Shown here in pieces: positions 9,466 through 40,910 of a DNA stretch of 41,300 bases (position 1 is the stretch's first letter; each line of letters starts with the position of its first letter). The notes beneath the pieces are model-generated. The model worked only from the letters and a program-made list of their open reading frames with translations, did not search any database and was not told where the DNA came from. Both the position numbers and the translations under genes were made by a program. This DNA comes from a virus, in the IMG/VR virus record IMGVR_UViG_3300025324_000020, positions 1 to 41,300 of that record. The stretch is one strand, 5' to 3'.

Positions 9466-11668
9466 CGCCGCATACTCAGGCGGCGGTCTCACTAACCCCG
9501 ACAATGGCCACGCTGATGACGGCAACTATGCGACCTGCGCGCCCGCAAAAAACTCCTCAACAGGGTCTACGTATTCAACCTTCGGGCTCGATTCCCTCAT
9601 TCCTTCAGACGCGACCGTTCAGCAGGTACGGCTGATCTACGAGTACAAAGTCAGCGTCAACACTTCGATCGCCACCGCGCGAGTACGCGCCCGGGTCGGC
9701 GGGGTTGACGAAGAAGCTCACGACAACACTGTGGAACCACTCACCGATACAGTGGTCAGCGTGGACGTGACAGCGGATCGCGCCTGGACTCGTAACGACT
9801 TGCTGGACGCAAACTTCGCCGCCGTCTTTGAAGGCGTCCGGGGCAACAGCAGCACAGCGGTAACCTTCTCGCTTGACTACCTCAAGGTGGAGGTCACCTA
9901 CACGCGCGCGCTGGCTCTGGCAAGCGGATCGTTTACAGTCACGGGGCAGGCGACGGGGCTTAAAGCAACTCGCCGGCTGGCACTTGCTACCGGCGCCTAC
10001 ACTCTTGCGGGCCAGGCTGTCGGACTCGAAGCCAGTGGCGGGCTCTTCGATGGTTTAACGGCAGCATGGCGGTTGGAAGAAACATCAGGAACGCGGATTG
10101 ATGCAACCGGGCGAGGTCACGATCTTACAGACAACAACACCGTCACTCAAGCAGCCGGCAAGGTAGGAAACGCGGCGCAGTTTACGCGCGCGAATTCAGA
10201 GTCGTTGTCCACCGCGGATCACGCTGATCTATCCGGAGCCGGGGACTTCACACTTGCGGCATGGGTTCGGTTGGACAGTAAATCCAACACGATGTTTATT
10301 ATCGCCAAGGCTGATGACAGCCTTTTTGTCTACGAGTACGAATTCCAGTATCACCAACCTAGTGACAGATTCTCGTTCGTAGTCGGCGACACGGCTGATC
10401 CGCAGAACATCGGATTCGTAAATGCCGACACACCTAGTCCTGTCGCTATTGACACATGGTATTTAATTATTTGCTGGCACGACTCGGTGAACGATCAGTT
10501 AGGTATTCAGGTTAGCACGGAAGGTGCGGAGGGAACTGTCTACACTACTGGTTACGCTGATGGGGTTAAGGACACTGCGCAAGGGTTGCGCCTGGGCGCT
10601 GACAACCAGCCTAACTGGTTTTTTGACGGACGGATTGACGCACCGCATTTCTGGCCGCGAGTTCTCACGGCCAGCCAGAGATCACTGCTATGGAACGACG
10701 GGGCTGGGCTAGAGTTCAGCAGCGTCGGCTCAACGCTGGCTTTAAGCCCAAGCGCCTACACTCTCACGGGCCAGGCTACAGGGCTCAGAGCCGCAAGAAA
10801 GCTCACGGCAGCGAGCGGAGGCCACACCCTAACCGGGCAGGCCATCGAACTGCGCAAAGGCTACCATCTGGCGATGGATGCAGGCAGTTACGCGGTATCC
10901 GGGCAGGCTGTCGGCCTGAAAGCGGCGCGCACACTAACGACGCAGACCGGGGTTTACTCCGCGACCGGGAACGTAACCGGACTTCAGGTTGATCGTCACC
11001 TCGCAGCCGCCGCAGGAACATACTCACTCACTGGTAATACTGTTGAGTTGCAGCCCAGCGCAACGACTTACACACTGGCAACAGGTACGGGTGTCTTCAC
11101 CTTGATGGGCCAACCGGCAGGATTGCCGCTCACGCGGCGCCTCCCAACGGAAACGGGCGCTTACATCGTTGCCGGGCAATCCTTGGGGGTCGAAGCAGGG
11201 CGCAGGCTCTCTTTGGGGTCCGGAGACTACTTTCTCACCGGGCAGTCAATCAATCTCAAAGCTGAGCGGCGGCTGACCGTCATAAATGGGATATACGGTC
11301 TCACGGGAAATCCGGCTGGAGTACATCATGGCCGCACACTCAGTGCGGCTCCCGCTGTATTCGCCTTGACTGGCCAAGCCATAAACCTGTTGGCGGGGCA
11401 GGTGATTGCCGCTGAGTTCGGCGGGTTCGGCCTGACTGGTAATGATGTGAGCTTCTCGCTCGGAACGGCGGCGCCGGTCCTTACTGCCGGGCCGGGCGTG
11501 TTCGCGTTTGCTGGCCACCCACTCACAGTACAACTCAGAGGGATGCGCTCGCTGCCCGCCGAAGTGAAACATGTCGGCGCCGACTCAGGCGTGACGGCAA
11601 TATCCCCATCTTCCGCCACCCTCCGAATAGGCTCTGACCCCGCGGAGTATAAAATCCGCGTCCGATGA
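9437..11668 (+). CDS. Repeat-rich virion adhesin with inserted LamG/concanavalin-like domain
   Basis: This 743-residue protein has three parts. Residues about 1-155 form a beta-rich head ending LDYLKVEVTYTR. From about 156 to the end run about 14 degenerate repeats of roughly 21-25 residues with the pattern R-x-L-x4-G-x-Y-x-L-T-G-Q-A-x-G-L, for example LALATGAYTLAGQAVGLEA. Between repeats 2 and 3 sits a LamG-like lectin fold (about 204-430) with typical strands AWRLEETSG, GDFTLAAWVRLD, LRLGADNQPNWFFDGRIDAPHFWPRVLT. Such repeats occur in phage surface proteins. LamG domains bind glycans, so a role in host or surface attachment is likely. The gene lies just before the head-joining and portal genes, far from the tail tip. 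Confidence 0.7.
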   Translation: MPAIQFPTANAAYSGGGLTNPDNGHADDGNYATCAPAKNSSTGSTYSTFGLDSLIPSDATVQQVRLIYEYKVSVNTSIATARVRARVGGVDEEAHDNTVEPLTDTVVSVDVTADRAWTRNDLLDANFAAVFEGVRGNSSTAVTFSLDYLKVEVTYTRALALASGSFTVTGQATGLKATRRLALATGAYTLAGQAVGLEASGGLFDGLTAAWRLEETSGTRIDATGRGHDLTDNNTVTQAAGKVGNAAQFTRANSESLSTADHADLSGAGDFTLAAWVRLDSKSNTMFIIAKADDSLFVYEYEFQYHQPSDRFSFVVGDTADPQNIGFVNADTPSPVAIDTWYLIICWHDSVNDQLGIQVSTEGAEGTVYTTGYADGVKDTAQGLRLGADNQPNWFFDGRIDAPHFWPRVLTASQRSLLWNDGAGLEFSSVGSTLALSPSAYTLTGQATGLRAARKLTAASGGHTLTGQAIELRKGYHLAMDAGSYAVSGQAVGLKAARTLTTQTGVYSATGNVTGLQVDRHLAAAAGTYSLTGNTVELQPSATTYTLATGTGVFTLMGQPAGLPLTRRLPTETGAYIVAGQSLGVEAGRRLSLGSGDYFLTGQSINLKAERRLTVINGIYGLTGNPAGVHHGRTLSAAPAVFALTGQAINLLAGQVIAAEFGGFGLTGNDVSFSLGTAAPVLTAGPGVFAFAGHPLTVQLRGMRSLPAEVKHVGADSGVTAISPSSATLRIGSDPAEYKIRVR
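9907..11520 (+). repeat. Degenerate repeats encoding about 14 copies of a 21-25-residue unit
   Basis: The unit centres on codons for L-T-G-Q-A-x-G-L and recurs about every 66-72 bases, interrupted once by about 680 bases encoding the LamG-like domain. DNA identity between units is low while the protein pattern is kept, which indicates old duplications under selection. Confidence 0.7.
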
Positions 11669-23520: not shown

Positions 23521-24027
23521 ATGGAAACACTCGACACAACAGGCTTTCTTGTTACCGAGATCGCTGGCGAGTGGAATGTCTTGTCCGCCGACTTTGGCGA
23601 CGGCTTCGAGGCCGCGGCGACCGTTGGCGCGCCGGAGGGAACCCGCGTATGGACCATAAAGATTGACGCTTTAACCGGCGACCTCCGGGGCGGTTTGATA
23701 ACGGACGCGCTGGAACCGGCCTTCATACTCCGAGAAGACGGCAGTTTTATGCTGAGAGAAGATGGTGGCCAGATTCTCCAGGAGCAGGGTTCGACGCGCG
23801 CCCAATACTTATGGCGGTTTTTCCGCATCAGCAAGGCGAATGCAAATCAACCGTTCTGGTTTGAGGCCGAAGACCCGGATGATGGCCGTCGCAAACTTTT
23901 CTTGGCGAGTTTTACCGACAACCGGTTGAGCTACACAGTTCTTTGCGCAAAGGTGTACTCGACCGGGTTAATGTTGCGCCAGCGCCGGCTGCGCGACGTC
24001 ATGTCTCCTGTGCTAGCAGAGTCTTAA
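23521..24027 (+). CDS. Minor tail protein
   Basis: This 168-residue protein begins three bases after the tape measure stop. It contains the phage-typical repeated phrase ILREDGSFMLREDGGQILQEQG (residues 74-95, described by position) between two beta segments. The second, WRFFRISKANANQPFWFEAED then LSYTVLCAKVYSTGLMLRQRR, is like siphovirus tail-hub components of gpM type. The position after the tape measure supports a distal-tail role, although the family is not certain. Confidence 0.55.
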   Translation: METLDTTGFLVTEIAGEWNVLSADFGDGFEAAATVGAPEGTRVWTIKIDALTGDLRGGLITDALEPAFILREDGSFMLREDGGQILQEQGSTRAQYLWRFFRISKANANQPFWFEAEDPDDGRRKLFLASFTDNRLSYTVLCAKVYSTGLMLRQRRLRDVMSPVLAES

Positions 24028-24054: not shown

Positions 24055-25449
24055 ATGCCCGACCAAATGATTTCACAGGACCCGGAAGTCACATCGCTGC
24101 AAAATGGCGATTACGTCCCATTGATCCGAGCCGGCGACAATAAACGGATCAGCGGCCTGAATCTGACTAGCAGTGTGAGCGGCGCCGGCGTGTCCACGTT
24201 CAACGGCCGCAGTGGTGCAGTGTCGCTGATTTCCACTGACCTGAATGGACTGAGCGGCGCCGGACTCACAGGCATAGGCAGCGGAACAGGCGGCATCATT
24301 AACACTGGATCAACCACGATCGGCGCCGATAGTGACTCGGACGGCATCGGAGTCATCGCCTTGCAGACCCGCGGGATCACTCGCCTCCAGGTGAACAACG
24401 ACGGCACCGCCCAACTGATCAAAAACGACTTGCTGATAGGGACGTTCAACGGCGGCAACGCGGGCGGACGCCTCCGCCTCGCCACTGATAGCCCGGCAAT
24501 CTACGCCGCGTTTTCCGAGCAGACGTTTGACTTCACCAATGGACCGGTCGGCGAAACCAATTATAGTAACCACACCTGGGGAGTGTTTTATAACTCGGAC
24601 TTTAACGGAACGAAAGTGGTTGCTGGCGAAGTGAACTTCGGACTTGCTCACGAACCAAAGTTCTCTCAGGGCGGCGCGCCGTTTCAGACCGAGATTTACT
24701 ATTCATGGACAGATCCGAGCAACGCTTTTTCTATTCGTCCGTGGGGAATGGTGATCGCCCACGCGACCGGGTCAACCACGTTTACCAGCCAGGGGCACAT
24801 CCATTTCTTTCGCGACATAGGACAAGGGGGAGGGCAAAGTGCGGAGTGGAATGAAGAAGGCTGGCTACGATTCTATACCGCTAATGCCGGCGTGACGTTC
24901 CCTAACAACATTGGCGGCCTGAAATGGCGGAACGCAGCGGATGACAACACAGTTGTCCCGCTCTACGTTGACAATGCCAATAAGGTGCAAATTGGGTTTG
25001 GCTCTGATATCGAGATCAATGGCTCGATGAGAGTGGGCAGCCTAACGAATGTAAGCACGCTGACCGGCGATAGTGATCCGGATACGAAAATGCAGTTCAA
25101 CGGCGGCGACATCATATCGTGGTTCAGCGGCAACGTGCAGATTATGTCGATTCAGCCTTTTGGGCCAATGCTCGAACTGAACGCCCTGCTTTGTTTCAAT
25201 GCCGACAACACCTACGACGTTGGATTCAGGAATTTCACAAACTTCCGGCCGCGCAATGTGTACGTTGGGACCGACGTGATTACTGGCGGGACTCTTAACG
25301 TTACCACGGGGGGCTCGACCTCAATCAGCTCCGGAGTCGGGACAGTGAAAATGTCCTCTGCGAATCCGGCGGATAATGCAGCCTGGATTCCGCTGAAATA
25401 TCAGGGCGGAACCTATTACGTGCCCGGCTGGGCCGCCCACAATCCGTAG
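24055..25449 (+). CDS. Tail fiber protein
   Basis: The 464-residue protein begins with a short virion-binding part (SLQNGDYVPLIRAGDNKRISG). A Gly/Ser-rich shaft follows (STFNGRSGAVSLISTDLNGLSG), then a large globular domain at about residues 138-316 and a repetitive C-terminus ending in AAWIPLKYQGGTYYVPGW. The globular domain is closely matched by the secreted protein at 32436-33374 (shared FDFTNGP, YNSDFNGTKVV, SIRP, DN..V..G). It is probably the receptor-binding part. AGAGAGGAG upstream gives a good ribosome site. Confidence 0.75.
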   Translation: MPDQMISQDPEVTSLQNGDYVPLIRAGDNKRISGLNLTSSVSGAGVSTFNGRSGAVSLISTDLNGLSGAGLTGIGSGTGGIINTGSTTIGADSDSDGIGVIALQTRGITRLQVNNDGTAQLIKNDLLIGTFNGGNAGGRLRLATDSPAIYAAFSEQTFDFTNGPVGETNYSNHTWGVFYNSDFNGTKVVAGEVNFGLAHEPKFSQGGAPFQTEIYYSWTDPSNAFSIRPWGMVIAHATGSTTFTSQGHIHFFRDIGQGGGQSAEWNEEGWLRFYTANAGVTFPNNIGGLKWRNAADDNTVVPLYVDNANKVQIGFGSDIEINGSMRVGSLTNVSTLTGDSDPDTKMQFNGGDIISWFSGNVQIMSIQPFGPMLELNALLCFNADNTYDVGFRNFTNFRPRNVYVGTDVITGGTLNVTTGGSTSISSGVGTVKMSSANPADNAAWIPLKYQGGTYYVPGWAAHNP

Positions 25450-25861: not shown

Positions 25862-28800
25862 ATGCCAGGCGAAGATATACAACTCGACTCCAAGGTGGCC
25901 ACGTTGCGCACGATGCAGCGTGAGGGCAACAGCCCGCGCGTTGCCGAGCTGGTGCTGGTGCAATGGCCTGCTCCTGATGGTCCAATCTACTATGGGACCC
26001 GGGTGGCGCATGATCTGCTTGATAGCCCCGAGCTTCTGGCTCGCATTGAGGGAGAGATTGAATTACGGCTGGGTTCCGGAATCTTCCTCGAGGTGCCGCG
26101 CACTGCCGGCATCAGCGACGACACAATCGCTCTCGATTTTTGGGACGGCGACAATGAGTTAACTCGCCTCACACAGGTGCACGGCGCGGGGATGCGCGTC
26201 GAAGTGTTTTATTATTTTCCGGACGTCGACCTGTTGCTGTCACATTGGTGGGGTCACTTGCAGCCAGCCGACGAGGGCGGCGTCGATCGCTTCCGCGCCA
26301 ATGCCCAATCAGGTTTTCGCTCGAGCAACCTGCCATTGCCCGGTCGCGCGTTTTACACGGGCTGCCAGGCGGTCTTTGGAGGCCTGCTCGAAACGCAGGC
26401 CGAGATTGACGAAGGCGACTGTCCTTACAGCCGTCACCTCGCCGGCACACGCGGCGCCGGCAGTTTTGCGACTGACACAAGCTGGGTGCAAACACAGACA
26501 CCTGCTGATGGCTGGCAGAATCTCGCCTTTGATGACAGCTCCTGGTCTGCGCCCGTTGACCAGGGTCCGGTAGCTACTTCCCCGTGGACAGGCAGCGGTG
26601 GACCACCGGCGTTTCCTTCAGGCACTACAGCACGATGGATCTGGTATCACGACAGCCGCTTTTCAACCTCGCTGGACAATTCAATCGTCTACTTTCGCAA
26701 GCGCTTCACCGCCGCGGCCGCGAGCGCGCTCCTAGTTATGTCGGCAGATGAAACCTTCGATTGCTATCTGAATGGCACACTCATCGCCACTGGCGTCAAC
26801 GACTGGAGACAGTCGCGCACCGTGGCTCTTAGCCTGGTGCAGAATGAAGAGTACGTGCTGGCAGTCAGGGTCGATAATAGCGTCACTCAAATCCCGGGCC
26901 TGATCTTCAGCCCGGGCGGCCTCGTAGCGGAGGTGTCATATGGTTTGCTGGGGATAGGTTTCGGCAATCTGGATCCGGCCACGGGCCAGCCTTTCACCAC
27001 TTGCCCGCGGAACAGCCGCGCGGTGTGTGTCGAGCGTTTAGGCGACGACAAATCGTACCTCGCATTTGACTCCGTGCTGGAATCACATGTGGTCCACGAG
27101 ACCAAGGGCCCGAACATTACCGTCACCTCGCGCGGCAATGAGACAAACCTGAGCCGGCCGCTGCGCGTGATAGCCGGCAAGCGCCACGTTTCGGATCTCG
27201 ACCTGCTACTGTTTGTCGTCGAGCCGAACACGAAACATCCCGACCAGGGGTCTGTGAAATGCCTCTACGCAGTTGCGGAGGGCAATAACCGCTCCGTGAA
27301 AAACGGCCTGATAAACGGGGTGACGATTGCTCCACAGCATTCGAATTATCGCACCGGCGCCAGGCGCCAGGTGGCCACATCCTTCTCCCCGAACGTGTTG
27401 AATTATTCAGGCACTGGACTGTTTCTCGGGGTGGCCCAGGGCAATTTCAACCAAGCGGGCGCTGACGATCTGAGAGGCGAAGTGGACGTCGAGGGATTGG
27501 ATGATGTGCGCATCTACTCGGACACACAAAACTTCGTCTATGGCTACACGACAGACCGCGCGTGGTGGCTGCTGCATTGCCTCCGAAACAAACGCTGGGG
27601 TTATGGCCTCGATGCGAAGCGGGTGCGCATTCAGGACTTCCTCGACATTGCCGCGTGGTTCAGGGAAATCGTTACCGTGAAAGACAAGGATGGGAATATT
27701 TTCACCGGGCAACGCTCGCAATTCAACGCGGAGTTGATAGGACGCACCACGCAACAGCAGATCGAAGATATCTGCCGCAGCGGCCGGCTGGGCTTGCCGT
27801 TTCCGGATAAAGGCCAGTTGCGGGTCGTGCCATTGCGTCGGGCCAGCGAATTGTTTTCGCCCGGTGTGTTTACTGATAAGGCTTTCTTCGGCGCCTTGAA
27901 TCGCGCGCCAACGGCCGGAGAGCGCGACGAGTGGTTTGAGGCGTTGCTCGACGCGCGAGCCGTCTCACAGGCCATCCTCCTTGCCGAAGGGCAATCGAGA
28001 GTCATCAGCCTCTTCGAATCCGCAGAGTATGACGCCCGCAATCGCACTGATGAGGAGTTTGTTGGCGACTGCTATCGAGCCTTCCTGCGCCGCGAGGCGG
28101 ATGCGGAGGGCCTCGCCTTCTGGTTGAACGACCTGACCACCTTCTCGCCTCCGGAACTGGCGCGGACTCACATCCTGGAAGCCTTTTCACTTTCGACGGA
28201 GTTCGCTGCCGACTGTTCCGACAGTGATATCCCGACGTTCAGCGATCGAGGAGATGAAAGAAACGTTTGTCTTGATGGGCCACAGGCCGACGGCGGCAAG
28301 ACAACTCTCGTGTACTCGATTCAATCTGATGCCGACCTGCCGAACCGGGTAGTTCTCACCTTCGACGATGCGGCGCACGAAAACAAGCAGGTGCCGCTCA
28401 CCTTTGAGGATGTGGACCAGCAGCTCCGCGCGGGCCGCGCATTTGGCGACACCACGCGCCGGGTGGTCCAAAAGGACTATACAGCATTCGGCATCACTGA
28501 CGCCGGCGAAGCAGGACGATTGGGTAATCTGCTCCTGGACCTGGGCGAATTTGACGAAGGCGGACTAGCAAACAATCTCCGGTTCGCTTTCACGACGTGG
28601 TATATCGAGGTCGTAAATGTGCACCCCTATCAAATCATTAAAATCGATTCGGCAAAGCTGGACGCTATCAACGCCGTTCGCACAGCTAAAGGATTAGAGC
28701 CCTTTAGTTATTTCCGCGTGCGTTCGCTGAAGCGATTACCGGATCTAAAGGCAGAGGTGTCCTGCCAGGCATACCCGGTTGAATACTATGAGCGGCTCGA

Positions 28801-28975
28801 GCTGCTCACAGAACCTCCACCAGTAACTCCGAGCGGACCGCCCGACTTCGATCCTTTCGACCCTGATTTTCCCGGTGAGCCGGAACGACGGCCGCCCTTT
28901 GTGGTTGGCCTTGACGAGGTTGGCCACAACGACGATCAGATCTTCTTTCGGGTCGAACGCGACCCGATCACATAG
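25862..28975 (+). CDS. Tail tip / host-specificity protein with inserted domains
   Basis: The 1037-residue protein has a tail-tip framework starting RVAELVLVQWPAPDGPIYYGTRVAHDLLDS. It later has RWGYGLDAKRVRIQDFLDIAAWF (residues 577-599, by position), VDVEGLDDVRIYSDTQNFVYGY, and a C-terminal part KRLPDLKAEVSCQAYPVEYY. Two modules interrupt it. One is a galactose-binding-like jelly roll at about 200-360 (WQNLAFDDSSWSAP, WIWYHDS, VYFRKRFTA). The other is a DUF4214 domain at about 667-781 (FVGDCYRAFLRREADAEGLAFWLNDL). DUF4214 is found in secreted and surface proteins. These insertions probably extend its adhesive reach. Confidence 0.75.
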   Translation: MPGEDIQLDSKVATLRTMQREGNSPRVAELVLVQWPAPDGPIYYGTRVAHDLLDSPELLARIEGEIELRLGSGIFLEVPRTAGISDDTIALDFWDGDNELTRLTQVHGAGMRVEVFYYFPDVDLLLSHWWGHLQPADEGGVDRFRANAQSGFRSSNLPLPGRAFYTGCQAVFGGLLETQAEIDEGDCPYSRHLAGTRGAGSFATDTSWVQTQTPADGWQNLAFDDSSWSAPVDQGPVATSPWTGSGGPPAFPSGTTARWIWYHDSRFSTSLDNSIVYFRKRFTAAAASALLVMSADETFDCYLNGTLIATGVNDWRQSRTVALSLVQNEEYVLAVRVDNSVTQIPGLIFSPGGLVAEVSYGLLGIGFGNLDPATGQPFTTCPRNSRAVCVERLGDDKSYLAFDSVLESHVVHETKGPNITVTSRGNETNLSRPLRVIAGKRHVSDLDLLLFVVEPNTKHPDQGSVKCLYAVAEGNNRSVKNGLINGVTIAPQHSNYRTGARRQVATSFSPNVLNYSGTGLFLGVAQGNFNQAGADDLRGEVDVEGLDDVRIYSDTQNFVYGYTTDRAWWLLHCLRNKRWGYGLDAKRVRIQDFLDIAAWFREIVTVKDKDGNIFTGQRSQFNAELIGRTTQQQIEDICRSGRLGLPFPDKGQLRVVPLRRASELFSPGVFTDKAFFGALNRAPTAGERDEWFEALLDARAVSQAILLAEGQSRVISLFESAEYDARNRTDEEFVGDCYRAFLRREADAEGLAFWLNDLTTFSPPELARTHILEAFSLSTEFAADCSDSDIPTFSDRGDERNVCLDGPQADGGKTTLVYSIQSDADLPNRVVLTFDDAAHENKQVPLTFEDVDQQLRAGRAFGDTTRRVVQKDYTAFGITDAGEAGRLGNLLLDLGEFDEGGLANNLRFAFTTWYIEVVNVHPYQIIKIDSAKLDAINAVRTAKGLEPFSYFRVRSLKRLPDLKAEVSCQAYPVEYYERLELLTEPPPVTPSGPPDFDPFDPDFPGEPERRPPFVVGLDEVGHNDDQIFFRVERDPIT

Positions 28976-31003: not shown

Positions 31004-31048
31004 TGGTGCCCCCGGCGCGATTCCAACGCGCGACCTTCCGCTTAGGAG
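31004..31048 (-). other. Probable phage attachment site (attP): 3' half of tRNA-Arg(CCT)
   Basis: On the minus strand this 45-base block reads as the 3' half of a tRNA-Arg: anticodon loop with CCT, a T-arm GCGCG-TTGGAAT-CGCGC, the acceptor strand CGGGGGC, and CCA. Upstream of the anticodon the sequence no longer fits a tRNA (no D-arm or matching acceptor strand), so it is a fragment and not a gene. It lies 155 bases from the end of the integrase gene, the usual place for a core that replaces the 3' end of the host tRNA on integration. The T-loop has G where tRNAs have the near-invariant C56. Confidence 0.75.
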
Positions 31049-31203: not shown

Positions 31204-32427
31204 TCAGTTGACGCTTTCGCTTTCGGCTGTGACGGCCGTGACATCGGGCGAAGGACTCGGCAGATCGGGCAGGGACGCAGCTCGTATCGCATCGACGCGC
31301 GCGGCGATCGAACGGGCGATTTCGCGGTCGATATTCACGTAACGCAGGAAGGTTTTATAACTCGTATGTCCGGAGATCTTCATCACCTCCGCTTCGGAAA
31401 GCTTGTAAAAGTGAAGCATGCGAGTGATCGCGGTGTGTCGCAGATCGTGCCAGCGCAGGCCTTCGATGCCGGCAAGGCGACAGGCCGTATGAAAGGCTCG
31501 CCTGGGATTGCGATTGAGAAACAGGCGCGGGTCATTCGGACGAGTCTTGAGCAGAACCAAGCGATCCCGTAAGGCCGGCGCGAGCTCGCGAGCCAGGCGA
31601 TCGAAGATAGGCACAACGCGAATCTGCGCAGTCTTCGAACTGAACGCCCGCAAGCTAATTACTCGTTCCCGCGCGTCGACGTCGCGCAACTCGAGCCCCA
31701 TCTGTTCGCCCTGGCGCAGGGCGGTCTCGAGCGCGAAGAGAATCTCGAGCCGAAGATGCCGGCGCGGGCCCACACACACAGCCAACAGTCTTTCCTCTTC
31801 ATCCCAGGTCAGGACGCGCATCCGTTTCACCTCGTCGGCAGTCTGAATTAACGGTTTGCCGCGGTGAAACGGATGCTCGGCGATCCAGCGTTCGCGCAGC
31901 GCTAAAAAAAACAAGTGACGCAGCAGGGAAAGCTCTCGGTTGACTGCCGCGATCGAACGTTGCCGGCCGTGCACGGTGGGTTTCAGTAATCGCTGGCGCT
32001 TGTAGTCGGCGACGTCTCCGTAAGTGATGGTCACCAGCGACATTCGCCCGAAGAACTTTTCCAGGGGCTTCAACCGGCTTTGGAATTTCGCGAACGAACG
32101 AAGGCCTGCGATCTTCATCTCGCCGATATACTCAGCAGGTTTCATTTCATGGAGTTTGTAGTAGGCGACCAGATCTGAGAACGAGCGCCTGGGGTTGGGC
32201 CGCTCAACGCCGGCGAAATCCTGTTCGATCTCCCGGTCGATCTCCCGGCGCCGGCGCGCCGCCTCAGTCTCGGTGTAAGCAATGCGCTTCTTCTCGCGGG
32301 GCCTGCCTTTCAGATCCGTGTAGCGCTTTTTAACCAGCATATGCGCGCGCCGGATCACCTGGCCGGTCGCCTCGTCGATTACAGCCGGGACGTTAACGAT
32401 GGATCCGTCTTTAGTTCCGCGGGGCAT
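31204..32427 (-). CDS. int: Tyrosine recombinase integrase
   Basis: This 407-residue site-specific recombinase has an N-terminal arm-binding region rich in Arg/Lys and a core-binding SAM-like domain (FRDLVAYYKLHEMKP-like, then YGDVADYKRQRLL). The catalytic domain carries ETALRQGEQMGLEL (first Arg), LRWHDLRHTAITRML (H-x-x-R), ISGHTS (His/Gly) and FLRYVNID (nucleophilic Tyr). It would join attP at 31004-31048 to a tRNA-Arg gene. It lies eight bases after the secreted fiber-like gene on the same strand, in an apparent leftward operon with the repressor. Confidence 0.9.
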   Translation of the reverse strand: MPRGTKDGSIVNVPAVIDEATGQVIRRAHMLVKKRYTDLKGRPREKKRIAYTETEAARRRREIDREIEQDFAGVERPNPRRSFSDLVAYYKLHEMKPAEYIGEMKIAGLRSFAKFQSRLKPLEKFFGRMSLVTITYGDVADYKRQRLLKPTVHGRQRSIAAVNRELSLLRHLFFLALRERWIAEHPFHRGKPLIQTADEVKRMRVLTWDEEERLLAVCVGPRRHLRLEILFALETALRQGEQMGLELRDVDARERVISLRAFSSKTAQIRVVPIFDRLARELAPALRDRLVLLKTRPNDPRLFLNRNPRRAFHTACRLAGIEGLRWHDLRHTAITRMLHFYKLSEAEVMKISGHTSYKTFLRYVNIDREIARSIAARVDAIRAASLPDLPSPSPDVTAVTAESESVN

Positions 32428-32435
32428 TTATCTGT

Positions 32436-33374
32436 CTACTCTCGCCTGAACTTCAGAAGGGGCTTTTTCGGCTTAGGCGGAGCCATGGCGTTGCTGGTCG
32501 CACATGTGCCTGTCGTGGGGTCCACCAACCCATGCCGCCGAAGACAGCCCAACAGAGCATTTATGGCCCTGCCGTTGTCTGCCGGCGACCCGTCGCTATC
32601 AGGAATTGGTCCGCACTGGGCGCCCAATACCTGAGTGTCCTGGCGCTTAATCGTCTCGTTGTACACCAGGCTCGCGGACGTCACTATAGTTTCTCTTTGC
32701 CAGCCACCAACGAGCACGCGATCTTGGTTGTCAACGAAGATTGCGGCGATGCTGTTGTCCCCAGCCGCATTGCCCCATCGGAGAGCCTGGTGATTATTTC
32801 TGAAGCCAAATCCACCATTTGGCGCCGGCCGTAAGTCGAGAAACCCATCGTCATGCCAAATTCCCCACTGCGCTCCGCCGTTGGAAAAGTTCCGAAAAAA
32901 ATTGATTTGACCGTGAAGGGTCAGGCCAAAGTTGCCGGTATCATACTGAACAGTCCAACCAAACGGGCGAATCGAAATCGAACCGTCAGGGCTGGCCCAG
33001 TTGTAGTGATACTCGGTCATGAAGGCGCCCGGATCTCCGGGAACGCCGTTTCTGAACTTAGCTTCACTGGAAAACATGAAGTTGACGAGCCCTGGAACAA
33101 CCTTCGTCCCATTGAAATCCGAATTGTAACCGAAGCCAAAGGTGTGGTTCGTGTAGTTAATCTCTTCCGGCGGCCCATTCGTGAAATCGAAGCCCATTGA
33201 ACTGAAAACCACCGGAGCAAAAGTTGGCCCACTGGTGGCTAGTCGTATCCTGGCGGCATCGTTTCGCAAGTTGAACGCGCCAAATAAAGCGTCATTGTCA
33301 GGTGTCTGGGCTGAAACTGAAACAACCGAAACAACGAGCAGGCAACTGAGTGCAAGTATCGTAAGGGTTTTCAT
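32436..33374 (-). CDS. Secreted tail-fiber-like protein, candidate superinfection-exclusion factor
   Basis: I place the start at ATG 33374 (a GTG lies one codon before), after GGAGA. The 312-residue protein has a signal peptide, MKTLTILALSCLLVVSVVSV, with probable cleavage after SVSA (residue 22). Residues about 41-223 match the globular domain of the phage's own tail fiber (24055-25449, residues 138-316). Shared phrases include RLAT, FDFTNGP, YNSDFNGTKVV, SIRP, INFFR or HFFR, and VDN..V..G. It lacks the virion-anchoring N-terminus of the fiber. It lies between repressor and integrase on the lysogeny strand, so it is probably made by lysogens. I infer that it occupies the receptor and blocks related phages. 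Confidence 0.75.
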   Translation of the reverse strand: MKTLTILALSCLLVVSVVSVSAQTPDNDALFGAFNLRNDAARIRLATSGPTFAPVVFSSMGFDFTNGPPEEINYTNHTFGFGYNSDFNGTKVVPGLVNFMFSSEAKFRNGVPGDPGAFMTEYHYNWASPDGSISIRPFGWTVQYDTGNFGLTLHGQINFFRNFSNGGAQWGIWHDDGFLDLRPAPNGGFGFRNNHQALRWGNAAGDNSIAAIFVDNQDRVLVGGWQRETIVTSASLVYNETIKRQDTQVLGAQCGPIPDSDGSPADNGRAINALLGCLRRHGLVDPTTGTCATSNAMAPPKPKKPLLKFRRE

Positions 33375-33433
33375 CACAGTGGTCTCCTTCGGGGAGCGCT
33401 AGTCTAACACCGCGGTCAAGGGGAACTGGGTTT

Positions 33434-33844
33434 TTAAGCTGCTCGATCACTTCCCCGGTGATTTTTTGACTGGCCAGGCTGAACAGATCGCAACTGGTGA
33501 AGGCTGCGTAATATCCCGAGCAGGTCTTCCTGGCGCTCGCTGGGTAACTCGCGAAAAAGTCTTAGTAGGATCTGTTCCTGTGTGGACGGATCTGTCGGGG
33601 CTCTGCCCTGAACCGTGGCGAATATCTCTTCTCTTGGCACGCCGAGTCCATTGGCCAGGGCTAGAAGCTTTCTGGGGCTCGGATTGGTAGCAATTCCGCT
33701 TTCGATGCGGGAGACGTAAGTCCCCGCAATCTTAGTTCCCCGCCGCGCGCTTTGCCGTTCGATATCGCCCTGCGACAGGTTTTTAGCAATTCGCACTCGC
33801 CGGACGTAATCCGCTAATGATTCGGGCTTTTCCCGTTCACCCAT
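33434..33844 (-). CDS. XRE-family repressor
   Basis: I place the start at ATG 33844 (MGEREKPESLADYV), preceded by GGAGGG. The frame is open further upstream but has no better site. The 136-residue protein has an N-terminal helix-turn-helix (ADYVRRVRIAKNLSQGDIER, then GTYVSRIESGI and PRKLLALANGLGV). A helical C-terminus for dimerisation follows (EQILLRLFRELPSERQEDLLGILR). It is divergent from the early promoter at 33990 and is probably the lysogeny repressor. No protease-type (LexA-like) domain is present, so induction would not be by self-cleavage. Confidence 0.8.
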   Translation of the reverse strand: MGEREKPESLADYVRRVRIAKNLSQGDIERQSARRGTKIAGTYVSRIESGIATNPSPRKLLALANGLGVPREEIFATVQGRAPTDPSTQEQILLRLFRELPSERQEDLLGILRSLHQLRSVQPGQSKNHRGSDRAA

Positions 33845-33989: not shown

Positions 33990-34018
33990 TTGACAGGGAT
34001 TCAGGAACGGTTTATAAA
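33990..34018 (+). promoter_or_regulatory. Early rightward promoter
   Basis: TTGACA (33990-33995), a 17-base spacer and TATAAA (34013-34018) form a strong sigma-70 promoter pointing right, away from the repressor gene. An operator-like dyad (34031-34047) overlaps the expected transcription start. Confidence 0.8.
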
Positions 34019-34030
34019 GCCCTGCATATA

Positions 34031-34047
34031 GGTACGTAATCCGTACC
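34031..34047. promoter_or_regulatory. Candidate repressor operator GGTACG-N5-CGTACC
   Basis: A perfect six-base inverted repeat with a five-base spacer lies 13 bases after the -10 box. Bound repressor would block initiation. The same half-site GGTACG recurs in the 34711-34747 dyad. Confidence 0.6.
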
Positions 34048-36038: not shown

Positions 36039-36763
36039 GAAGCAACAAACCGGATGATTACCCGAGCCTGTTCGCGATGAGCCCAGGAACTCCGCTGTCT
36101 TTAGTGGGCGCCCGGGCGACCGAATCCTCCAAGGTTCACAGGATTGTTAGAAATCGGTCGACCGCGAAACCCGGATTCGGGCGCCCGGGCGACCGATTTT
36201 GCGAGACCGAATATCAGTGGGCTTCGCGGGCCGGACGGAAGCGCAAAGCCGGGCGCTTCAACCCCGAACTTTTGCGGAAAACCGAGGTGGAATTGAAGAA
36301 ACAGGGGAAGCTCTGGCAAGAGTTTGTGGATTATGCGATGGCTGTTTGGCTCGAGGCCGGCAGTCCGAATTTGGTCGACCGGGCGCCCGCATGTAGTTGT
36401 AGTGGTAGTTGTTGTGTTCTACATAAAGATCAAAATAAAACCACAACAACAACCACTGCGGTCGCCCGAAATCTGCCCGGCTTCCCATCGGAACTGCTGG
36501 AGATCCCGCACAAGACGTTGCATCCGCTTCAGACACTATGGGACTACGCGATGTCAAGCTATCGCCAGGAGTTTGACGGGTACGAGGGAGTAGCCAAGCC
36601 GCATTTCTGGATCAGAGAAGCATGGAAGACCGGCAAGTACGATTCGATTGTCAGTTCGTGGATGGAGACCAAGCAGCGTCACGAGCAGCGTCTGCAAAAG
36701 GCAGACGAAAAACGGCAAAAAGAAATCGAACAGATGCGCCGTGTCGAGCCAAAAGAGTCATGA
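36035..36763 (+). CDS. Basic protein with internal origin-like repeats, possible replication initiator
   Basis: The start at ATG 36035, coupled to the previous gene, gives 242 residues. The N-terminal half is basic and low in motif content. The middle (KAGRFNPELLRKTEVELKKQGKLWQEFVDYAMAVWL, residues 71-106) is helical. A Cys/Thr-rich insert (CSCSGSCC, then TTTTTT) is followed by a helical C-terminus with a charged coil (EQRLQKADEKRQKEIEQM). The DNA inside the gene carries iteron-like repeats and an AT-rich dyad (see 36106-36480), much as lambda O encodes its own origin. No family match is claimed. Confidence 0.45.
   Translation: MRSNKPDDYPSLFAMSPGTPLSLVGARATESSKVHRIVRNRSTAKPGFGRPGDRFCETEYQWASRAGRKRKAGRFNPELLRKTEVELKKQGKLWQEFVDYAMAVWLEAGSPNLVDRAPACSCSGSCCVLHKDQNKTTTTTTAVARNLPGFPSELLEIPHKTLHPLQTLWDYAMSSYRQEFDGYEGVAKPHFWIREAWKTGKYDSIVSSWMETKQRHEQRLQKADEKRQKEIEQMRRVEPKES
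36106..36480. repeat. Iteron-like cluster of GGTCG(A/C)CC sites, candidate replication origin
   Basis: An 18-base unit GGGCGCCCGGGCGACCGA occurs exactly at 36106-36123 and 36179-36196. CGGTCGACCG lies at 36155-36164. A near-inverted copy GGTCGACCGGGCGCCC lies at 36373-36388, and GGTCGCCCG near 36460. Between the last two is an AT-rich 16-base dyad (AGTGGTAGTTGTTGTG with CACAACAACAACCACT, one mismatch). Repeats plus an AT-rich dyad within a putative initiator gene fit a phage origin. Confidence 0.5.
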
Positions 36764-37155
36764 GCAATCGCGGTCGTTGCAACCAATGTGGCGCAGAGAT
36801 TATCTGGGCCATAAACACCGAGCGGAACCGAAGGGCGGCCTTAGATTCCGCCCCCTGGCCGGATACTCACGGCAACATAATGCTGCACGAAGACGGACGG
36901 CACTACCAGATTCTCAACAGTGAGCTAATCGAGCAAGCGCGCCGGCGCAGCTTCCCGCTGTACACCAATCACCTTGAAACCTGTCCGGCGCGCGAGCGCC
37001 CATCGCGCTATCAACAAACCTTCGGCACGGAGGAGAAAGATATCTATGAGTACACAAATGGATCAGACGCCAGTGAAGGGCATGCCGCCGGAACTGGCAG
37101 AGAAAGGCTGGCAACTCTTTTTGAGCGACAGCATGAAGTTTCGCGCGTCGGTTGA
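36760..37155 (+). CDS. Small phage zinc-binding protein, paralogue of 1422-1712
   Basis: The start at ATG 36760, coupled to the previous gene, gives 131 residues. The first 80 residues match the 1422 protein in order and spacing: CNQCGAEIIW, RRAALDSAPWPDTHGNIMLH, RRRSFPLYTNHLETCPA. The last 50 residues overlap the ParB gene by 110 bases in another frame, an unusually long overlap, and are probably a poorly conserved tail. It opens the PRTRC cassette at its upstream side. Confidence 0.65.
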   Translation: MSNRGRCNQCGAEIIWAINTERNRRAALDSAPWPDTHGNIMLHEDGRHYQILNSELIEQARRRSFPLYTNHLETCPARERPSRYQQTFGTEEKDIYEYTNGSDASEGHAAGTGRERLATLFERQHEVSRVG

Positions 37156-38746
37156 AGTTAATGGAGACGAGCTTGTGCTCGGTCCCTACCCAACGGCCCA
37201 GGAGGCGATCGACGATGCGCGCAACCGCCAGGTCGAGATCGACGAGATATTGCCAGAGGACATAATTGAGAGCGGGTGGCGGCTGGAAGAAGGGAAGAAA
37301 CCGCTGCCTTACAGTTTGGTAAACGACAAGTTGGAACTCAATACCGAGAACTATCGCTATGTCGCGGGCGCGATCGAAAAAGCGCGCGAAATGGAAATTG
37401 AAAAGGCGGAGCGCGATGCGGTGGCCACAGATGGCAATGTAGCCGCAGTGGCGGCACCGGCGAAGATATCACCCAGCGCGGCAAGTGTAGACGTAACTAG
37501 TGTAGACGTAACTATGCTTATGCACCCTGACGAGATTCGCACCGACGGCGGAACGCAACCGCGGGAGGCGCTCGACATGGTCGTCGTCGCCGAATACAAA
37601 GAGGCAATGATATTTGGCGCCGTGTTTCCGTCCGCCGACGTGTTTTATGACGGGCAGCACTACTGGCTCGCCGACGGCTTCCACCGCCACCGGGCAACGA
37701 TCGAGGCGGAACTGGAAGAGATGCTGGTGACCGTTCACGACGGCACGCAGCGCGATGCGCTGCTGTTTTCTTTCGGAGCAAACGAAACGCATGGCCTCCG
37801 GCGCTCCAACGCTGATAAACGCCGCGCGGTTCTAACAATGCTTCACGATGACGAGTGGCGGGAATTATCAGATACAGTCATCGCGGAGACCGCCAAGGTC
37901 TCTCAGCCATTCGTCTCCAAACTCCGCCGCGAGATATCTCAAAATGTTTTAAGTGGAGAGGCTCAGCCAACGGCGCGTAAGGGCAAGGACGGCATAGTAC
38001 GCGAGACCGCGAACATCGGCGGGCGCGGGGAAGGTGAGATCGCGGCGACCGATGATCGCCAGAGGTCACTGGCTGACATTGGCGTTGAGTTGCCTCCGAG
38101 AACCGAATTCGAGGAGGAGACGGAGGAGTCGCTGGCCGCCCAGGCGCAGCGGCGGGAGATCGCCGGCGATTGGTCCACGGATGAAGTCGTGAGCGCGATC
38201 CGGAAAAACGGCGGCTCGATGTTTCGCGGCGAGCTCGAGGAACGCGGGTGCTCATACGCCGCTATCCTGGGCGCGCTTCACGATGAGGCAATCACTCAAC
38301 CGGAGACGGGCAAGTACGCGCTCCGGGATTTGCAGGAGCGTTCAGAAGCATTCGAGAAGAAGCACGGAACCGATATATCAGCGGCACCGGCACCTTCGCC
38401 ACGTCCAACGAAGGCAAAGGTGACGGTCGAAGAGTTGCTAAAAGGCCGAATGCTGGTCGTCAGCTTCACCTGGATTCCCGGGCTGAAAAACAAGGTGAGC
38501 GTGAGCGTGAACGCGGGCCAGAAGCCGGAGAATGCCTCGCGGGAAGTTATTGACTCGATCAAGACGCCGCAGTTTCCCGACGAAGTGCAGGCCCTGATCG
38601 TCCAACAACTAAAAAACCCTCCGGCAGTCACTGGCTCTACAAAGCGAGTCAAGACACCAGCGCGGAGCCGGCCAGCCCGGAAGTCTGTGGCGAAGAAGGC
38701 GGCGAAGAAAGCCGCCAAGAAACCCACCAAAGGAAGGAGGCGGTAA
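37046..38746 (+). CDS. PRTRC ParB-family protein with Lys/Ala-rich tail
   Basis: The start at ATG 37046 follows GGAGGAG. A frame open from 36974 has no ribosome site. The 566-residue protein has a long N-terminal region. A ParB-type nuclease-like domain lies at about 160-255, with DGQHYWLADGFHRHRATIEA and FGANETHGLRRSNADKRRAV, and a helix-turn-helix at about 272-297 (LSDTVIAETAKVSQPFVSKLRRE). A linker follows, then a domain near 435-500 (RMLVVSFTWIPGLKNKVSVSVN) that may be a fused PRTRC-E-like unit. The end is a histone-like Lys/Ala tail. It is the likely binder of the dispersed palindromes, one of which lies inside it. Confidence 0.75.
   Translation: MSTQMDQTPVKGMPPELAEKGWQLFLSDSMKFRASVEVNGDELVLGPYPTAQEAIDDARNRQVEIDEILPEDIIESGWRLEEGKKPLPYSLVNDKLELNTENYRYVAGAIEKAREMEIEKAERDAVATDGNVAAVAAPAKISPSAASVDVTSVDVTMLMHPDEIRTDGGTQPREALDMVVVAEYKEAMIFGAVFPSADVFYDGQHYWLADGFHRHRATIEAELEEMLVTVHDGTQRDALLFSFGANETHGLRRSNADKRRAVLTMLHDDEWRELSDTVIAETAKVSQPFVSKLRREISQNVLSGEAQPTARKGKDGIVRETANIGGRGEGEIAATDDRQRSLADIGVELPPRTEFEEETEESLAAQAQRREIAGDWSTDEVVSAIRKNGGSMFRGELEERGCSYAAILGALHDEAITQPETGKYALRDLQERSEAFEKKHGTDISAAPAPSPRPTKAKVTVEELLKGRMLVVSFTWIPGLKNKVSVSVNAGQKPENASREVIDSIKTPQFPDEVQALIVQQLKNPPAVTGSTKRVKTPARSRPARKSVAKKAAKKAAKKPTKGRRR
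37484..37513 (+). repeat. Tandem 15-base repeat inside parB
   Basis: AGTGTAGACGTAACT is repeated exactly, encoding SVDVT twice. It lies in the linker before the nuclease-like domain and may be a recent duplication. Confidence 0.6.
37938..37953. promoter_or_regulatory. Dispersed 16-bp palindrome, copy 7 (two mismatches), inside parB
   Basis: CTCAAAATGTTTTAAG lies in the parB coding sequence just after the region encoding the helix-turn-helix. Partition proteins often have a binding site in or near their own gene. Confidence 0.5.
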
Positions 38747-39196
38747 ATGGGCCTGATAAAAATCGAGGGCAAGGAAGTCTCGCTGCCGGACGCAATCATC
38801 GACGCCGGCACGTCTGCAATCCGCGCGGCCCTGAGCGTTGACTTCCCCGATGTCGAGAATGCCGACATTCAAATCGTCTCGCCCACCCGCGCCGGCGCGC
38901 CGAAAGCGGCAACCGTCGTGAAGCGCGGTACCGGTAAAGGCTCCGCGCAACGCGAAGTCATGGAATCGCTGGCGGCTGCGCCGGAGTACGTCAACCCGGC
39001 CATCGCGATGGCCATCGAGTGTATGGCGGAAGAAACGCGCGGCGATCAGGAAGCAATCATGAGAGTTATTCGATCAGGCGCAATGGAACGGGCGGTCGCG
39101 GAAGGTGAACGTGAGGGCCTCGCCGTACATAAGTCCCAGGTTGCGTGTGGCCATGCGCCCCCGATCGCGGCGAGAAAGGTGCCGATTGGCTTCTGA
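38747..39196 (+). CDS. PRTRC protein C: ubiquitin-like protein with C-terminal extension
   Basis: The ATG directly follows the parB stop, and GGAGG is upstream. Residues 1-65 match the PRTRC-C ubiquitin-like (beta-grasp) family: LIKIEGKEVSLPDAIID, the helix SAIRAALSVDFPDVENADI, and the C-terminal GTGKG at 61-65, comparable to the GTKG end of family members. The usual protein stops about here, at 65-75 residues. This one continues for 84 residues of mostly helix (AAAPEYVNPAIAMAIECMAEE). The extension is odd and suggests either a precursor trimmed by the JAB protein or a fused second domain. Confidence 0.7.
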   Translation: MGLIKIEGKEVSLPDAIIDAGTSAIRAALSVDFPDVENADIQIVSPTRAGAPKAATVVKRGTGKGSAQREVMESLAAAPEYVNPAIAMAIECMAEETRGDQEAIMRVIRSGAMERAVAEGEREGLAVHKSQVACGHAPPIAARKVPIGF

Positions 39197-39197
39197 G

Positions 39198-40085
39198 ATG
39201 CAGCGGCAACTCACCCTGGACATGGCGCGGGTTTATCTCGCGTCGCGCGCGCGCGTGCGGACGCCGCTCGGCGCCGGCGACTATCTTGACTGCTCGCATC
39301 ATTACGCGCGAGACATTTACGACAAGCGGATACTGATCGCGCTGGCCTGCCTGTCAATCTACCGGCAACTTTTTCCCGACCAGTATGCGCGCTCGGCGGC
39401 GCCGCCGTTCTCAACACAGCGCGAACAGGAGTTTTACCGCCTCGTGCACACGCACTGCTTTCCTCTCCTTGTTGACGACGGAGAAGATGTATTGACCTGG
39501 ATCGCGCGCGAGCCTCGATTCTTTCTCCCCTTCATTCCGATCCGCGGCTTGCAGCGATACGACTGGTTCATGGATGGCTCGCATGTGAAGGATTTCGAGA
39601 TTCCGTACCAACTCGCGCTGCTCCTCTCCGGAGCGCTGCCGGATGACGTGCACACGATCGCTGGTCTTTGCTTCCCGGCTGATTTCCCGGAGCCGGCCCC
39701 GCCGGTCGCGGCTGTCGGCTGGTCGCTATTTCTGCATGCCTGCAAAGTCCATGAGGATAGCCCGCTTCGCTTTCTGCCCCTGGCCTTCCACATGGTCAGC
39801 CACAAGACAGGCAATCTCTGGCTTGACCTGCCGCGCCACGTGGGCCAGGCGGCATACGCGTGGTCACCCGAAGAAGTAGCGCGGCTCACGTTAATGCGGG
39901 TGAACGCGGATAAATTCGATATCGCCGTGCGCGCGCTGCACAACTGGTTTATCGAAGATCTGCGAGCGCGCATCAGCCGGGTGATTGAGATCTGGAATGA
40001 CGCAGCGCGGAAAGAATCGGAAGCGGGTTATGGAGGTATGACGGCAGAGGATATGGTTGCTGTGGTTGCTGCTCTCCCCAGGTGA
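39198..40085 (+). CDS. PRTRC system protein F
   Basis: I place the start at ATG 39198, one base after the previous TGA codon (39194-39196). A longer frame from 39105 would overlap the Ubl gene. The 295-residue protein has a long N-terminal mixed region, then GLQRYDWFMDGSHVKDFEIPYQLALLLSGALPDDV (residues 113-147, by position). FLPLAFHMVSHKTGNLWLDL and a C-terminal VRALHNWFIEDLRARISRVIEIW follow. Position between PRTRC-C and B, length, and content fit PRTRC protein F, whose biochemical role is unknown. Confidence 0.65.
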   Translation: MQRQLTLDMARVYLASRARVRTPLGAGDYLDCSHHYARDIYDKRILIALACLSIYRQLFPDQYARSAAPPFSTQREQEFYRLVHTHCFPLLVDDGEDVLTWIAREPRFFLPFIPIRGLQRYDWFMDGSHVKDFEIPYQLALLLSGALPDDVHTIAGLCFPADFPEPAPPVAAVGWSLFLHACKVHEDSPLRFLPLAFHMVSHKTGNLWLDLPRHVGQAAYAWSPEEVARLTLMRVNADKFDIAVRALHNWFIEDLRARISRVIEIWNDAARKESEAGYGGMTAEDMVAVVAALPR

Positions 40086-40097
40086 GTTCGAGCGCGT

Positions 40098-40910
40098 ATG
40101 ACGGAGGGTACTGAATTGACCTACGAAATTGTTGATACGGGGCTGGACGTGATCGAAAGCCTGAGGAAGCGCGATGGTGTCAGCATAAGACCCCAGCAGA
40201 GCGCAGCGGAAAACCCGCGGCTGGAATTCCGTAACGGCCAATTCTTCTTTCGCAGCACGTTACTGGAGGGTGGCCTCGTCGAACGTTATCTGTCCGACGC
40301 GGCCGTGCGCGAGGCATTCTCGAAAATCCCGATTGACTCGGGCTGGCTCAATCCCGAGATCGCGAGGTGGGGAGACGGGAAGCTCGGGGAGTGGGCCGTC
40401 GCGTTTTTCCCGCCGTCGCTATATGACCTGGAGGTCACTCGAGAGGGCGAGGAAATTGCCCTTGACCGGATCCGCATTCCACTTCCAGGCATGGTGTTCT
40501 TTGGCATAGGGACGAATTATTTCGCGTGGGCTGTGAAGAGTGAAAGTCTCCAGCCATTTCACGAGATTTTCCGGGCGCCGCTGCCGAATGTCTACACCAG
40601 CGGCGCAGTGTGCTGGGGCCTGGTCACCCCACCGCGCGCCAACGCGCGTTCGCTGTTTCAGGCATGGGATCTCTTTATCAGGTCCACATTCAACAACCAT
40701 CTCGCGAATGGGAAGTCGAAGCGCTCTCGCGATGACGTGCGAATCATCCTGCGCGAACTCGCTGGTCCACGCGATCCAGTGGACCAGGTAATGGCTGGCG
40801 AAGCATGGCATTACCCGGTCGAAGATCTGGTGCGCCAGGTAGAGCACGTCGGGGTGACGCTGGACAAAGCGCTGCGCGAATTCTTTGAGACGGGAGAAAT
40901 GCCGGAGTGA
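40098..40910 (+). CDS. PRTRC system protein B (E2-like conjugating protein)
   Basis: This 270-residue protein matches the PRTRC-B / Prok-E2_D family. The beta-rich N-terminus has PRLEFRNGQFFFRSTLLEGG. WAVAFFPPSLYDLEV and IPLPGMVFFGIGTNYFAWAV follow. The probable active-site cysteine is C172 in PLPNVYTSGAVCWG, analogous to E2 catalytic cysteines. The C-terminal quarter has LFIRSTFNNHLANGKSK. It would accept the ubiquitin-like protein from ThiF and pass it to targets. Its stop overlaps the PRTRC-A start by three bases (GTGA). Confidence 0.85.
   Translation: MTEGTELTYEIVDTGLDVIESLRKRDGVSIRPQQSAAENPRLEFRNGQFFFRSTLLEGGLVERYLSDAAVREAFSKIPIDSGWLNPEIARWGDGKLGEWAVAFFPPSLYDLEVTREGEEIALDRIRIPLPGMVFFGIGTNYFAWAVKSESLQPFHEIFRAPLPNVYTSGAVCWGLVTPPRANARSLFQAWDLFIRSTFNNHLANGKSKRSRDDVRIILRELAGPRDPVDQVMAGEAWHYPVEDLVRQVEHVGVTLDKALREFFETGEMPE

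What the first reader, a model, noticed from the sequence alone, without database searches (positions are those of the whole stretch)
32436..33374. Secreted copy of the phage's own tail-fiber domain in the lysogeny operon
Residues 41-223 of this protein follow the globular domain of the tail fiber (24055-25449, residues 138-316) through many shared phrases (FDFTNGP, YNSDFNGTKVV, SIRP). The secreted copy has a signal peptide and lacks the virion-binding part and shaft. It lies between repressor and integrase on the lysogeny strand. The shared domain is what would touch the receptor, so a lysogen exporting it could mask the receptor from the same phage. I know of receptor-blocking lipoproteins and outer-membrane inhibitors in other phages, but not of a free fiber-domain decoy. 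The function is inference.
Basis: partly seen in the sequence, partly recalled or inferred. Interest (0 to 1): 0.9.

Follow-up and report, generated by a model that had tools for sequence, protein, structure and literature searches.

The report
Exported copy of phage fiber domain
A temperate virus of soil Acidobacteriota carries, between its repressor and integrase genes, an intact export-tagged protein built from the same unusual domain as its own tail fiber, which could let the dormant virus cover the attachment site from its own kind, although that function is untested.

Summary
Gene 32436-33374(-) encodes 312 aa: a clear Sec signal peptide, then about 200 residues 47% identical to part of the phage's own fiber (24055-25449; E=1e-53). 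It lies 8 nt upstream of the integrase start and 59 nt downstream of the repressor, same strand. Synonymous sites are saturated while half the residues are kept: both copies are old and constrained. No third copy of the domain was found in the collections searched.

Three corrections. (1) The shared domain is internal in the fiber; 149 residues follow it, and the exported protein has its own 88-aa C-terminus with three cysteines. That the domain touches the receptor is not shown. (2) Sec export reaches only the periplasm; surface display is inferred. (3) Four related Acidobacteriota prophages show no fiber/exported pair; instead their fiber genes themselves start with signal peptides, in the late operon.

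Best reading: an exported lysogenic-conversion protein derived from a fiber, most plausibly acting in self-exclusion by occupying the fiber's target, as the retroviral decoy Refrex-1 does. Rivals: a surface adhesin, or one more signal-peptide fiber of this phage group. Structure prediction failed. New variant of a known kind; function open.

The parts
32436..33374 (-). gene of the exported fiber-domain protein, 312 aa (P0001); ATG at 33374, possible GTG start at 33377
   Evidence: open frame; homology to the fiber E=1e-53
33384..33389 (-). ribosome-binding site AAGGAG, 9 nt before the ATG
   Evidence: sequence
33309..33374 (-). Sec signal peptide, residues 1-22, MKTLTILALSCLLVVSVVSVSA|QT
   Evidence: n/h/c-region rule, only hit >=4 among 40 window ORFs; A|QT cleavage context as in host and phage secreted proteins of the same group
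32703..33296 (-). shared domain, residues 27-224
   Evidence: 48% aa identity over 192 aligned codons to fiber residues 124-315
32439..32702 (-). own C-terminus, residues 225-312: three Cys, a predicted helix at 264-280 (low confidence), a basic tail KPKKPLLKFRRE
   Evidence: sequence; AF2 pLDDT about 59 at best in this stretch; no family hit
24055..25449 (+). tail fiber gene, 464 aa (P0002), upstream of the J-like gene
   Evidence: position in the tail module between 23521-24027 and the J-like gene 25862-28975 (phrog_31); shaft shared with fibers of relatives
24055..24423 (+). fiber N-terminus and shaft (residues 1-123), absent from the exported copy; no signal peptide
   Evidence: alignment; crude rule
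24424..24999 (+). shared domain in the fiber, residues 124-315
25000..25446 (+). distal fiber part, residues 316-464, ending IPLKYQGGTYYVPGWAAHNP; absent from the exported copy
31204..32427 (-). tyrosine integrase; its ATG lies 8 nt past the stop of the exported protein's gene
   Evidence: PF00589 E=1.1e-17; phrog_1 E=1e-47
33434..33844 (-). HTH repressor, likely ATG at 33844, 136 aa
   Evidence: HTH_31 1.3e-8; phrog_3 1.9e-8; homolog in prophage G077
33990..34047 (+). rightward promoter TTGACA-17-TATAAA (33990-34018) and inverted repeat GGTACG-5-CGTACC (34031-34047), likely early promoter and operator
   Evidence: sequence; inference
31004..31048 (-). attP core: 3' part of tRNA-Arg(CCT)
   Evidence: a degenerate pattern of this stretch matches mostly Pyrinomonadaceae and other Acidobacteriota tRNAs

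Best explanation
The gene is a lysogenic-conversion gene whose product is the phage's own fiber domain re-tooled for export. In the lysogen it is transcribed leftward with the repressor and integrase, exported by Sec, matured at VSVSA|QT and kept stable by disulfides in its new C-terminus. In the envelope it most likely occupies the surface glycan or protein that the virion fiber recognises, so that related phages adsorb less well (self-exclusion, and protection of progeny from adsorbing to debris). Shown here: the homology, the intact ORF, the signal sequence, the gene order, the ancient split with protein-level constraint, and the absence of the virion-binding end. Inferred: expression in the lysogen, passage beyond the periplasm or binding from inside, binding to the fiber's target, and exclusion.
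For: 47% identity over 203 aa, E=1e-53. The mature protein begins within a few residues of the shared domain, so the export signal is joined almost directly to it. Only strong signal peptide in the window. Directly between repressor and integrase, tight spacing, own ribosome-binding site. Codon-position identities 0.61/0.68/0.32 and 14 of 36 identical fourfold third positions at conserved residues: synonymous sites saturated, residues kept, so the exported copy is not a recent fragment or a decaying relic. [quoted passage not shown] an unrelated element of a Blastocatellia genome has the same order repressor, 142-aa signal-peptide protein, integrase. Precedent by mechanism: Refrex-1, a signal peptide plus truncated receptor-binding subunit that is secreted and blocks the receptor (PMC5923473).
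Against: The shared domain is internal in the fiber, so its role in receptor binding is assumed. At 47% identity two fiber domains need not bind the same target. Sec alone does not cross the outer membrane; no lipobox near the cleavage site and no other surface anchor seen. No fiber/exported pair in four relatives. Relatives carry signal peptides on late fiber genes, so export of a fiber-like protein need not mean lysogenic exclusion. No leftward promoter identified. No usable structure.
Confidence: 0.4

Rival explanations
1. Exported adhesin or lectin for the host's benefit: the fiber-derived domain binds polysaccharide on neighbouring cells or in the soil matrix, and helps the lysogen attach or feed. 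No exclusion of phages.
For: The export signal and lysogeny position fit any lysogenic-conversion gene. A host protein with a signal peptide shares a 64-residue stretch with a phage fiber of this group (G070), so fiber modules do pass between phages and the host secretome.
Against: The domain was not found in 162 Blastocatellia genomes (P0001) or 396 Acidobacteriota genomes (profile), so it is not a common host adhesin; its only known relative is the phage's own fiber.
Confidence: 0.25
2. It belongs to a wider habit of this phage group: fiber proteins that are exported and act late, joining virions after lysis or coating receptors on debris. Here the gene has moved to the integrase strand.
For: Seven of seven fiber-like genes downstream of J in four relatives (G077, G081, G135, G154) begin with signal peptides, tightly coupled to the tail operon; one ends in the K1-lyase_C domain (E=1.2e-23) and matches tailspike and tail fiber proteins of cultured phages; N-termini are conserved and C-termini variable.
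Against: P0001 lacks the conserved N-terminal module of those fibers (no hit) and any virion-attachment part; it lies on the lysogeny strand, not in the late operon.
Confidence: 0.2
3. Domain relic or recombination reserve: an inserted piece of fiber gene that supplies sequence for fiber variation and has no function as a protein.
For: Fiber genes exchange modules often; the two copies lie in inverted orientation, as in some fiber-switching systems (general knowledge).
Against: Copies are only 54% identical in DNA over the shared codons and no long repeat joins them, so homologous exchange is unlikely; the ORF is intact with a signal peptide, a ribosome-binding site and its own C-terminus; no recombinase other than the integrase was seen beside it.
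Confidence: 0.08

Closest known systems
Refrex-1 (feline ERV-DC7/16 truncated Env)
   Same: Signal peptide plus the receptor-binding part of the virus's own attachment protein, without the virion or membrane part; encoded by an integrated viral genome (PMC5923473)
   Different: Retroviral and animal; receptor blocking was measured there; made by truncation of env itself, whereas here the fiber and the exported copy are separate, old genes in one genome
T5 Llp, T1/phi80-type Cor, Rtp45 (superinfection-exclusion lipoproteins)
   Same: Phage-encoded exported proteins that stop the same phage from using its receptor; Llp is also thought to spare progeny from debris (PMC9586334, PMC12685063)
   Different: Small lipoproteins that act from the periplasmic face by allostery and are not derived from the receptor-binding protein; P0001 has 312 aa, no lipobox near its cleavage site and fiber homology
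Ltp of Streptococcus phage TP-J34
   Same: Exported exclusion protein encoded within the lysogeny module and expressed in the prophage state (PMC3952083)
   Different: Lipoprotein that blocks DNA injection, with the tape measure protein as target; not fiber-derived
Glo of Vibrio cholerae phage K139
   Same: Prophage-encoded soluble periplasmic exclusion protein (cited in PMC3952083), the compartment P0001 would reach by Sec
   Different: No fiber homology that I know of; mechanism unknown to me
Signal-peptide fibers of Blastocatellia prophages (seen here)
   Same: Fiber-like proteins with Sec signal peptides in phages related to this one
   Different: Late-operon genes with a conserved N-terminal Ig-like module, no lysogeny context, no second non-exported copy in the same genome

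Membership tests
Superinfection-exclusion lipoproteins (Llp/Cor type) | lipoprotein signal peptide with lipobox | tested here: not met
   Read by eye: the signal ends VSVSA|Q, a type I site; Cys11 lies inside the hydrophobic stretch, only 10 residues in, with Lys2 in the forbidden part of the PROSITE-style pattern. No SignalP run was possible.
Superinfection-exclusion lipoproteins (Llp/Cor type) | small protein | tested here: not met
   312 aa; Rtp45 is about 6 kDa
Ltp-type lysogeny-module exclusion genes | exported protein encoded in the lysogeny module with repressor and integrase | tested here: met
   gene order and strand
Ltp-type lysogeny-module exclusion genes | blocks DNA injection or infection | not testable with these tools
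   needs plating and adsorption tests
Soluble receptor-binding-protein decoy (Refrex-1-like, by function) | signal peptide joined to part of the virus's own attachment protein | tested here: met
   that the shared part is the attachment part is not shown
Soluble receptor-binding-protein decoy (Refrex-1-like, by function) | no virion or membrane anchoring part | tested here: met
   fiber residues 1-117 absent; no second hydrophobic segment apparent in the sequence
Soluble receptor-binding-protein decoy (Refrex-1-like, by function) | contains the receptor-contact site and blocks the receptor | not testable with these tools
   domain is internal in the fiber; both AF2 models unusable (pLDDT 35.8 and 31.9)
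Phage tail fiber (virion part) | virion-attachment N-terminus and tail-module position | tested here: not met
   P0001 starts with a signal peptide and the shared domain; lies on the opposite strand beside int
Signal-peptide fibers of Blastocatellia prophages | conserved N-terminal module after the signal peptide, shared by G077b, G135b, G154a and G081 | tested here: not met
   no hit of P0001 to any of the seven fibers

The most novel reading that the evidence does not exclude
A temperate phage makes a dedicated, exported copy of its own fiber domain in the lysogen, a soluble receptor-site decoy comparable to Refrex-1, as self-exclusion; exported fibers may be a broader strategy of Acidobacteriota phages, which put Sec signal peptides on their fiber genes.
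Probability: 0.3. Interest if true: 0.85.

Novelty: new variant of a known kind. Interest (0 to 1): 0.6.

Why it matters
Phage exclusion proteins whose structures are known block a receptor with small proteins unrelated to the attachment protein. A lysogen that exports part of its own attachment protein would be a different route to the same end, would tie the exclusion range directly to fiber specificity, and would be a bacterial-virus counterpart of retroviral envelope decoys. It would also offer a way to find the receptor of an uncultured phage: the exported domain is a ready-made soluble probe. The recurrence of signal peptides on late fiber genes in related Acidobacteriota prophages is unexplained by the cytoplasmic assembly model of tails and is testable by proteomics.

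Tried and rejected
Homologs of the domain: single-protein and profile scans of IMG/VR and GTDB representatives, two degenerate motif scans of IMG/VR, tblastn on INPHARED and PLSDB, Pfam, PHROGs, NCBIfam, PADLOC and PDB, 162 Blastocatellia and 396 Acidobacteriota genomes: no convincing relative. Weak hits rejected on inspection: L023 (TonB-type carboxypeptidase-like protein), L022 (M28-like peptidase), L021 (frame broken by stops), OAA lectin domain E=0.024 on the fiber only, Vibrio phage pYD21-A E=1 to 7. AF2 on P0001 alone and on the two-row domain alignment gave pLDDT 35.8 and 31.9, so no fold search was run. Lipoprotein reading rejected (lipobox rule not met). Portal protein scan of IMG/VR found nothing. 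Nearest genes upstream of 20 related integrases: only one showed the repressor / signal-peptide protein / integrase order. RNA structure at the gene's start is not stable beyond chance (z=+1.0). Recombination-reserve idea judged unlikely (54% DNA identity, no long repeats).

Full report
What is there. The window is a whole IMG/VR virus record of 41,300 bases. It reads as a complete, probably circular temperate siphophage: an open frame runs across the joined ends, the tRNA-type attachment site and integrase lie in the middle, and terminase, portal, capsid, tail and J-like genes follow in order. A degenerate pattern of the attachment-site tRNA-Arg 3' half matches 18 stretches in GTDB representatives, 15 of them from Acidobacteriota, mostly Pyrinomonadaceae; related integrases occur in 39 of 162 Blastocatellia genomes and related portals in 5 of 162. 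The host is therefore most likely a member of Blastocatellia (Acidobacteriota), a diderm.

The observation. The gene at 32436-33374(-) and the fiber gene at 24055-25449(+) share about 200 residues at 47% identity (E=1e-53; best of 2000 shuffles 32 bits against 169). The exported protein starts with MKTLTILALSCLLVVSVVSVSA|QT; on a crude rule it is the only one of 40 non-overlapping window ORFs with a strong signal peptide, and its A|QT context is seen in other secreted proteins of the same bacteria and phages. The stop codon lies 8 nt before the integrase ATG, the start 59 nt after the repressor's stop, and an AAGGAG site precedes it.

In the fiber the shared domain occupies residues 124-315 of 464: 149 residues lie distal to it and end IPLKYQGGTYYVPGWAAHNP. 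The exported protein lacks that distal part as well as the N-terminal 117 residues, and instead carries an 88-residue C-terminus with three cysteines, a possible helix (264-280) and a basic tail. So it is the internal fiber domain, not the fiber tip, that is exported, and its role in receptor contact is an assumption. Also, Sec takes the protein to the periplasm; crossing the outer membrane is not shown.

Age and constraint. Over 192 aligned codons the identities by codon position are 0.61, 0.68 and 0.32, and only 14 of 36 fourfold third positions at conserved residues agree. Synonymous sites are saturated while 48% of residues, and 72% in the stretch 68-92, are kept. The copies split long ago and both proteins have been under constraint; this argues against a decaying fragment. 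No other copy of the domain turned up in any collection searched. That two copies of such a rare domain sit in one genome argues for descent within this phage lineage, but the sampling of Acidobacteriota phages is thin.

Relatives. Two searches with window proteins and one with a fiber found by them gave four prophages or contigs with intact tail ends: G077, G081, G135, G154. None has a fiber/exported pair. In all four, the fiber-like genes that follow the J-like and 410-aa genes, tightly coupled to the operon, begin with Sec signal peptides: seven of seven genes. In the L029, L032 and L040 stretches these are the only ORFs with strong signal peptides. They are genuine fibers: one ends in the K1-lyase_C domain (E=1.2e-23) and matches tailspike and tail fiber proteins of cultured phages, others have Ig-like or pectate-lyase-like modules, and N-termini are conserved while C-termini vary. 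Two of them share the shaft motif of the window's fiber. P0001 does not share their N-terminal module. So exported fiber-like proteins are a habit of this phage group, and the window is a special case: an ordinary fiber without signal, plus an exported domain copy on the lysogeny strand.

The slot. In one unrelated Blastocatellia element (G083, L104) an HTH repressor, a 142-aa signal-peptide protein and an integrase stand in the same order; 1 of 20 examined. Ltp of TP-J34 is a published exclusion protein from the lysogeny module (PMC3952083).

Mechanism. The most economical reading is self-exclusion: an exported lysogenic-conversion protein that occupies what the fiber recognises. Refrex-1 (PMC5923473) works this way in cats. 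Llp and Rtp45 reach the same end from the periplasm with unrelated small lipoproteins (PMC9586334, PMC12685063). Shown: homology, export signal, position, constraint. Inferred: expression, localisation beyond the periplasm, shared ligand, exclusion. The main rivals are an adhesin for the host and an accessory fiber that acts at lysis. None can be excluded from sequence. The papers library held no report of a phage exporting its own fiber domain as a decoy; it holds only part of the literature.

Noticed in passing
L032:2677-5643(-), L032:5657-7066(-), L029:227-3232(-), L073:13533-14885(+), L073:14907-17675(+), L040:1794-4103(+), L040:4107-8402(+): Fiber and tailspike genes at the end of the tail operon of four Acidobacteriota prophages (G077, G081, G135, G154) all begin with Sec signal peptides. 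Tail assembly is cytoplasmic, so export of fibers is unexplained.
   Followed up: partly
window 1290, 5032, 7894, 13849, 19920, 24023, 37938: Palindrome CTTAAAACGTTTTAAG in 7 copies (<=3 mismatches) against 0.1 expected; the two perfect copies stand just upstream of the capsid gene (13926) and the fiber gene (24055). Looks like dispersed operators or stoperators.
   Followed up: no
window 36974-40910 and 478-1425, across the joined ends: PRTRC-type cassette (ParB-like, PRTRC_B E2-like with E=4.5e-13, PRTRC ThiF with E=3.6e-40; both below the curated cut-offs) in a temperate phage; the frame after the E2 gene runs through the junction.
   Followed up: partly
L104 (G083:C23), reverse strand 5772-7792: HTH repressor, 142-aa signal-peptide protein, integrase: same gene order as in the window, with an exported protein unrelated in annotation.
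   Followed up: partly
window 4517-5077 (+): Second HTH-type protein between lysis and terminase genes, weakly similar to the repressor (30% over 102 aa, E=3e-4).
   Followed up: no
window 9437-11668 (+): 743-aa protein with a concanavalin A-like (Laminin_G_3) domain (E=5e-16) between terminase and portal genes, an unusual place for a lectin-like protein.
   Followed up: no
window 1002-1712 (+) and 36577-37155 (+): Two frames share 35% identity over 71 aa (E=5e-9); one overlaps the ThiF gene, so one may be antisense or spurious.
   Followed up: no
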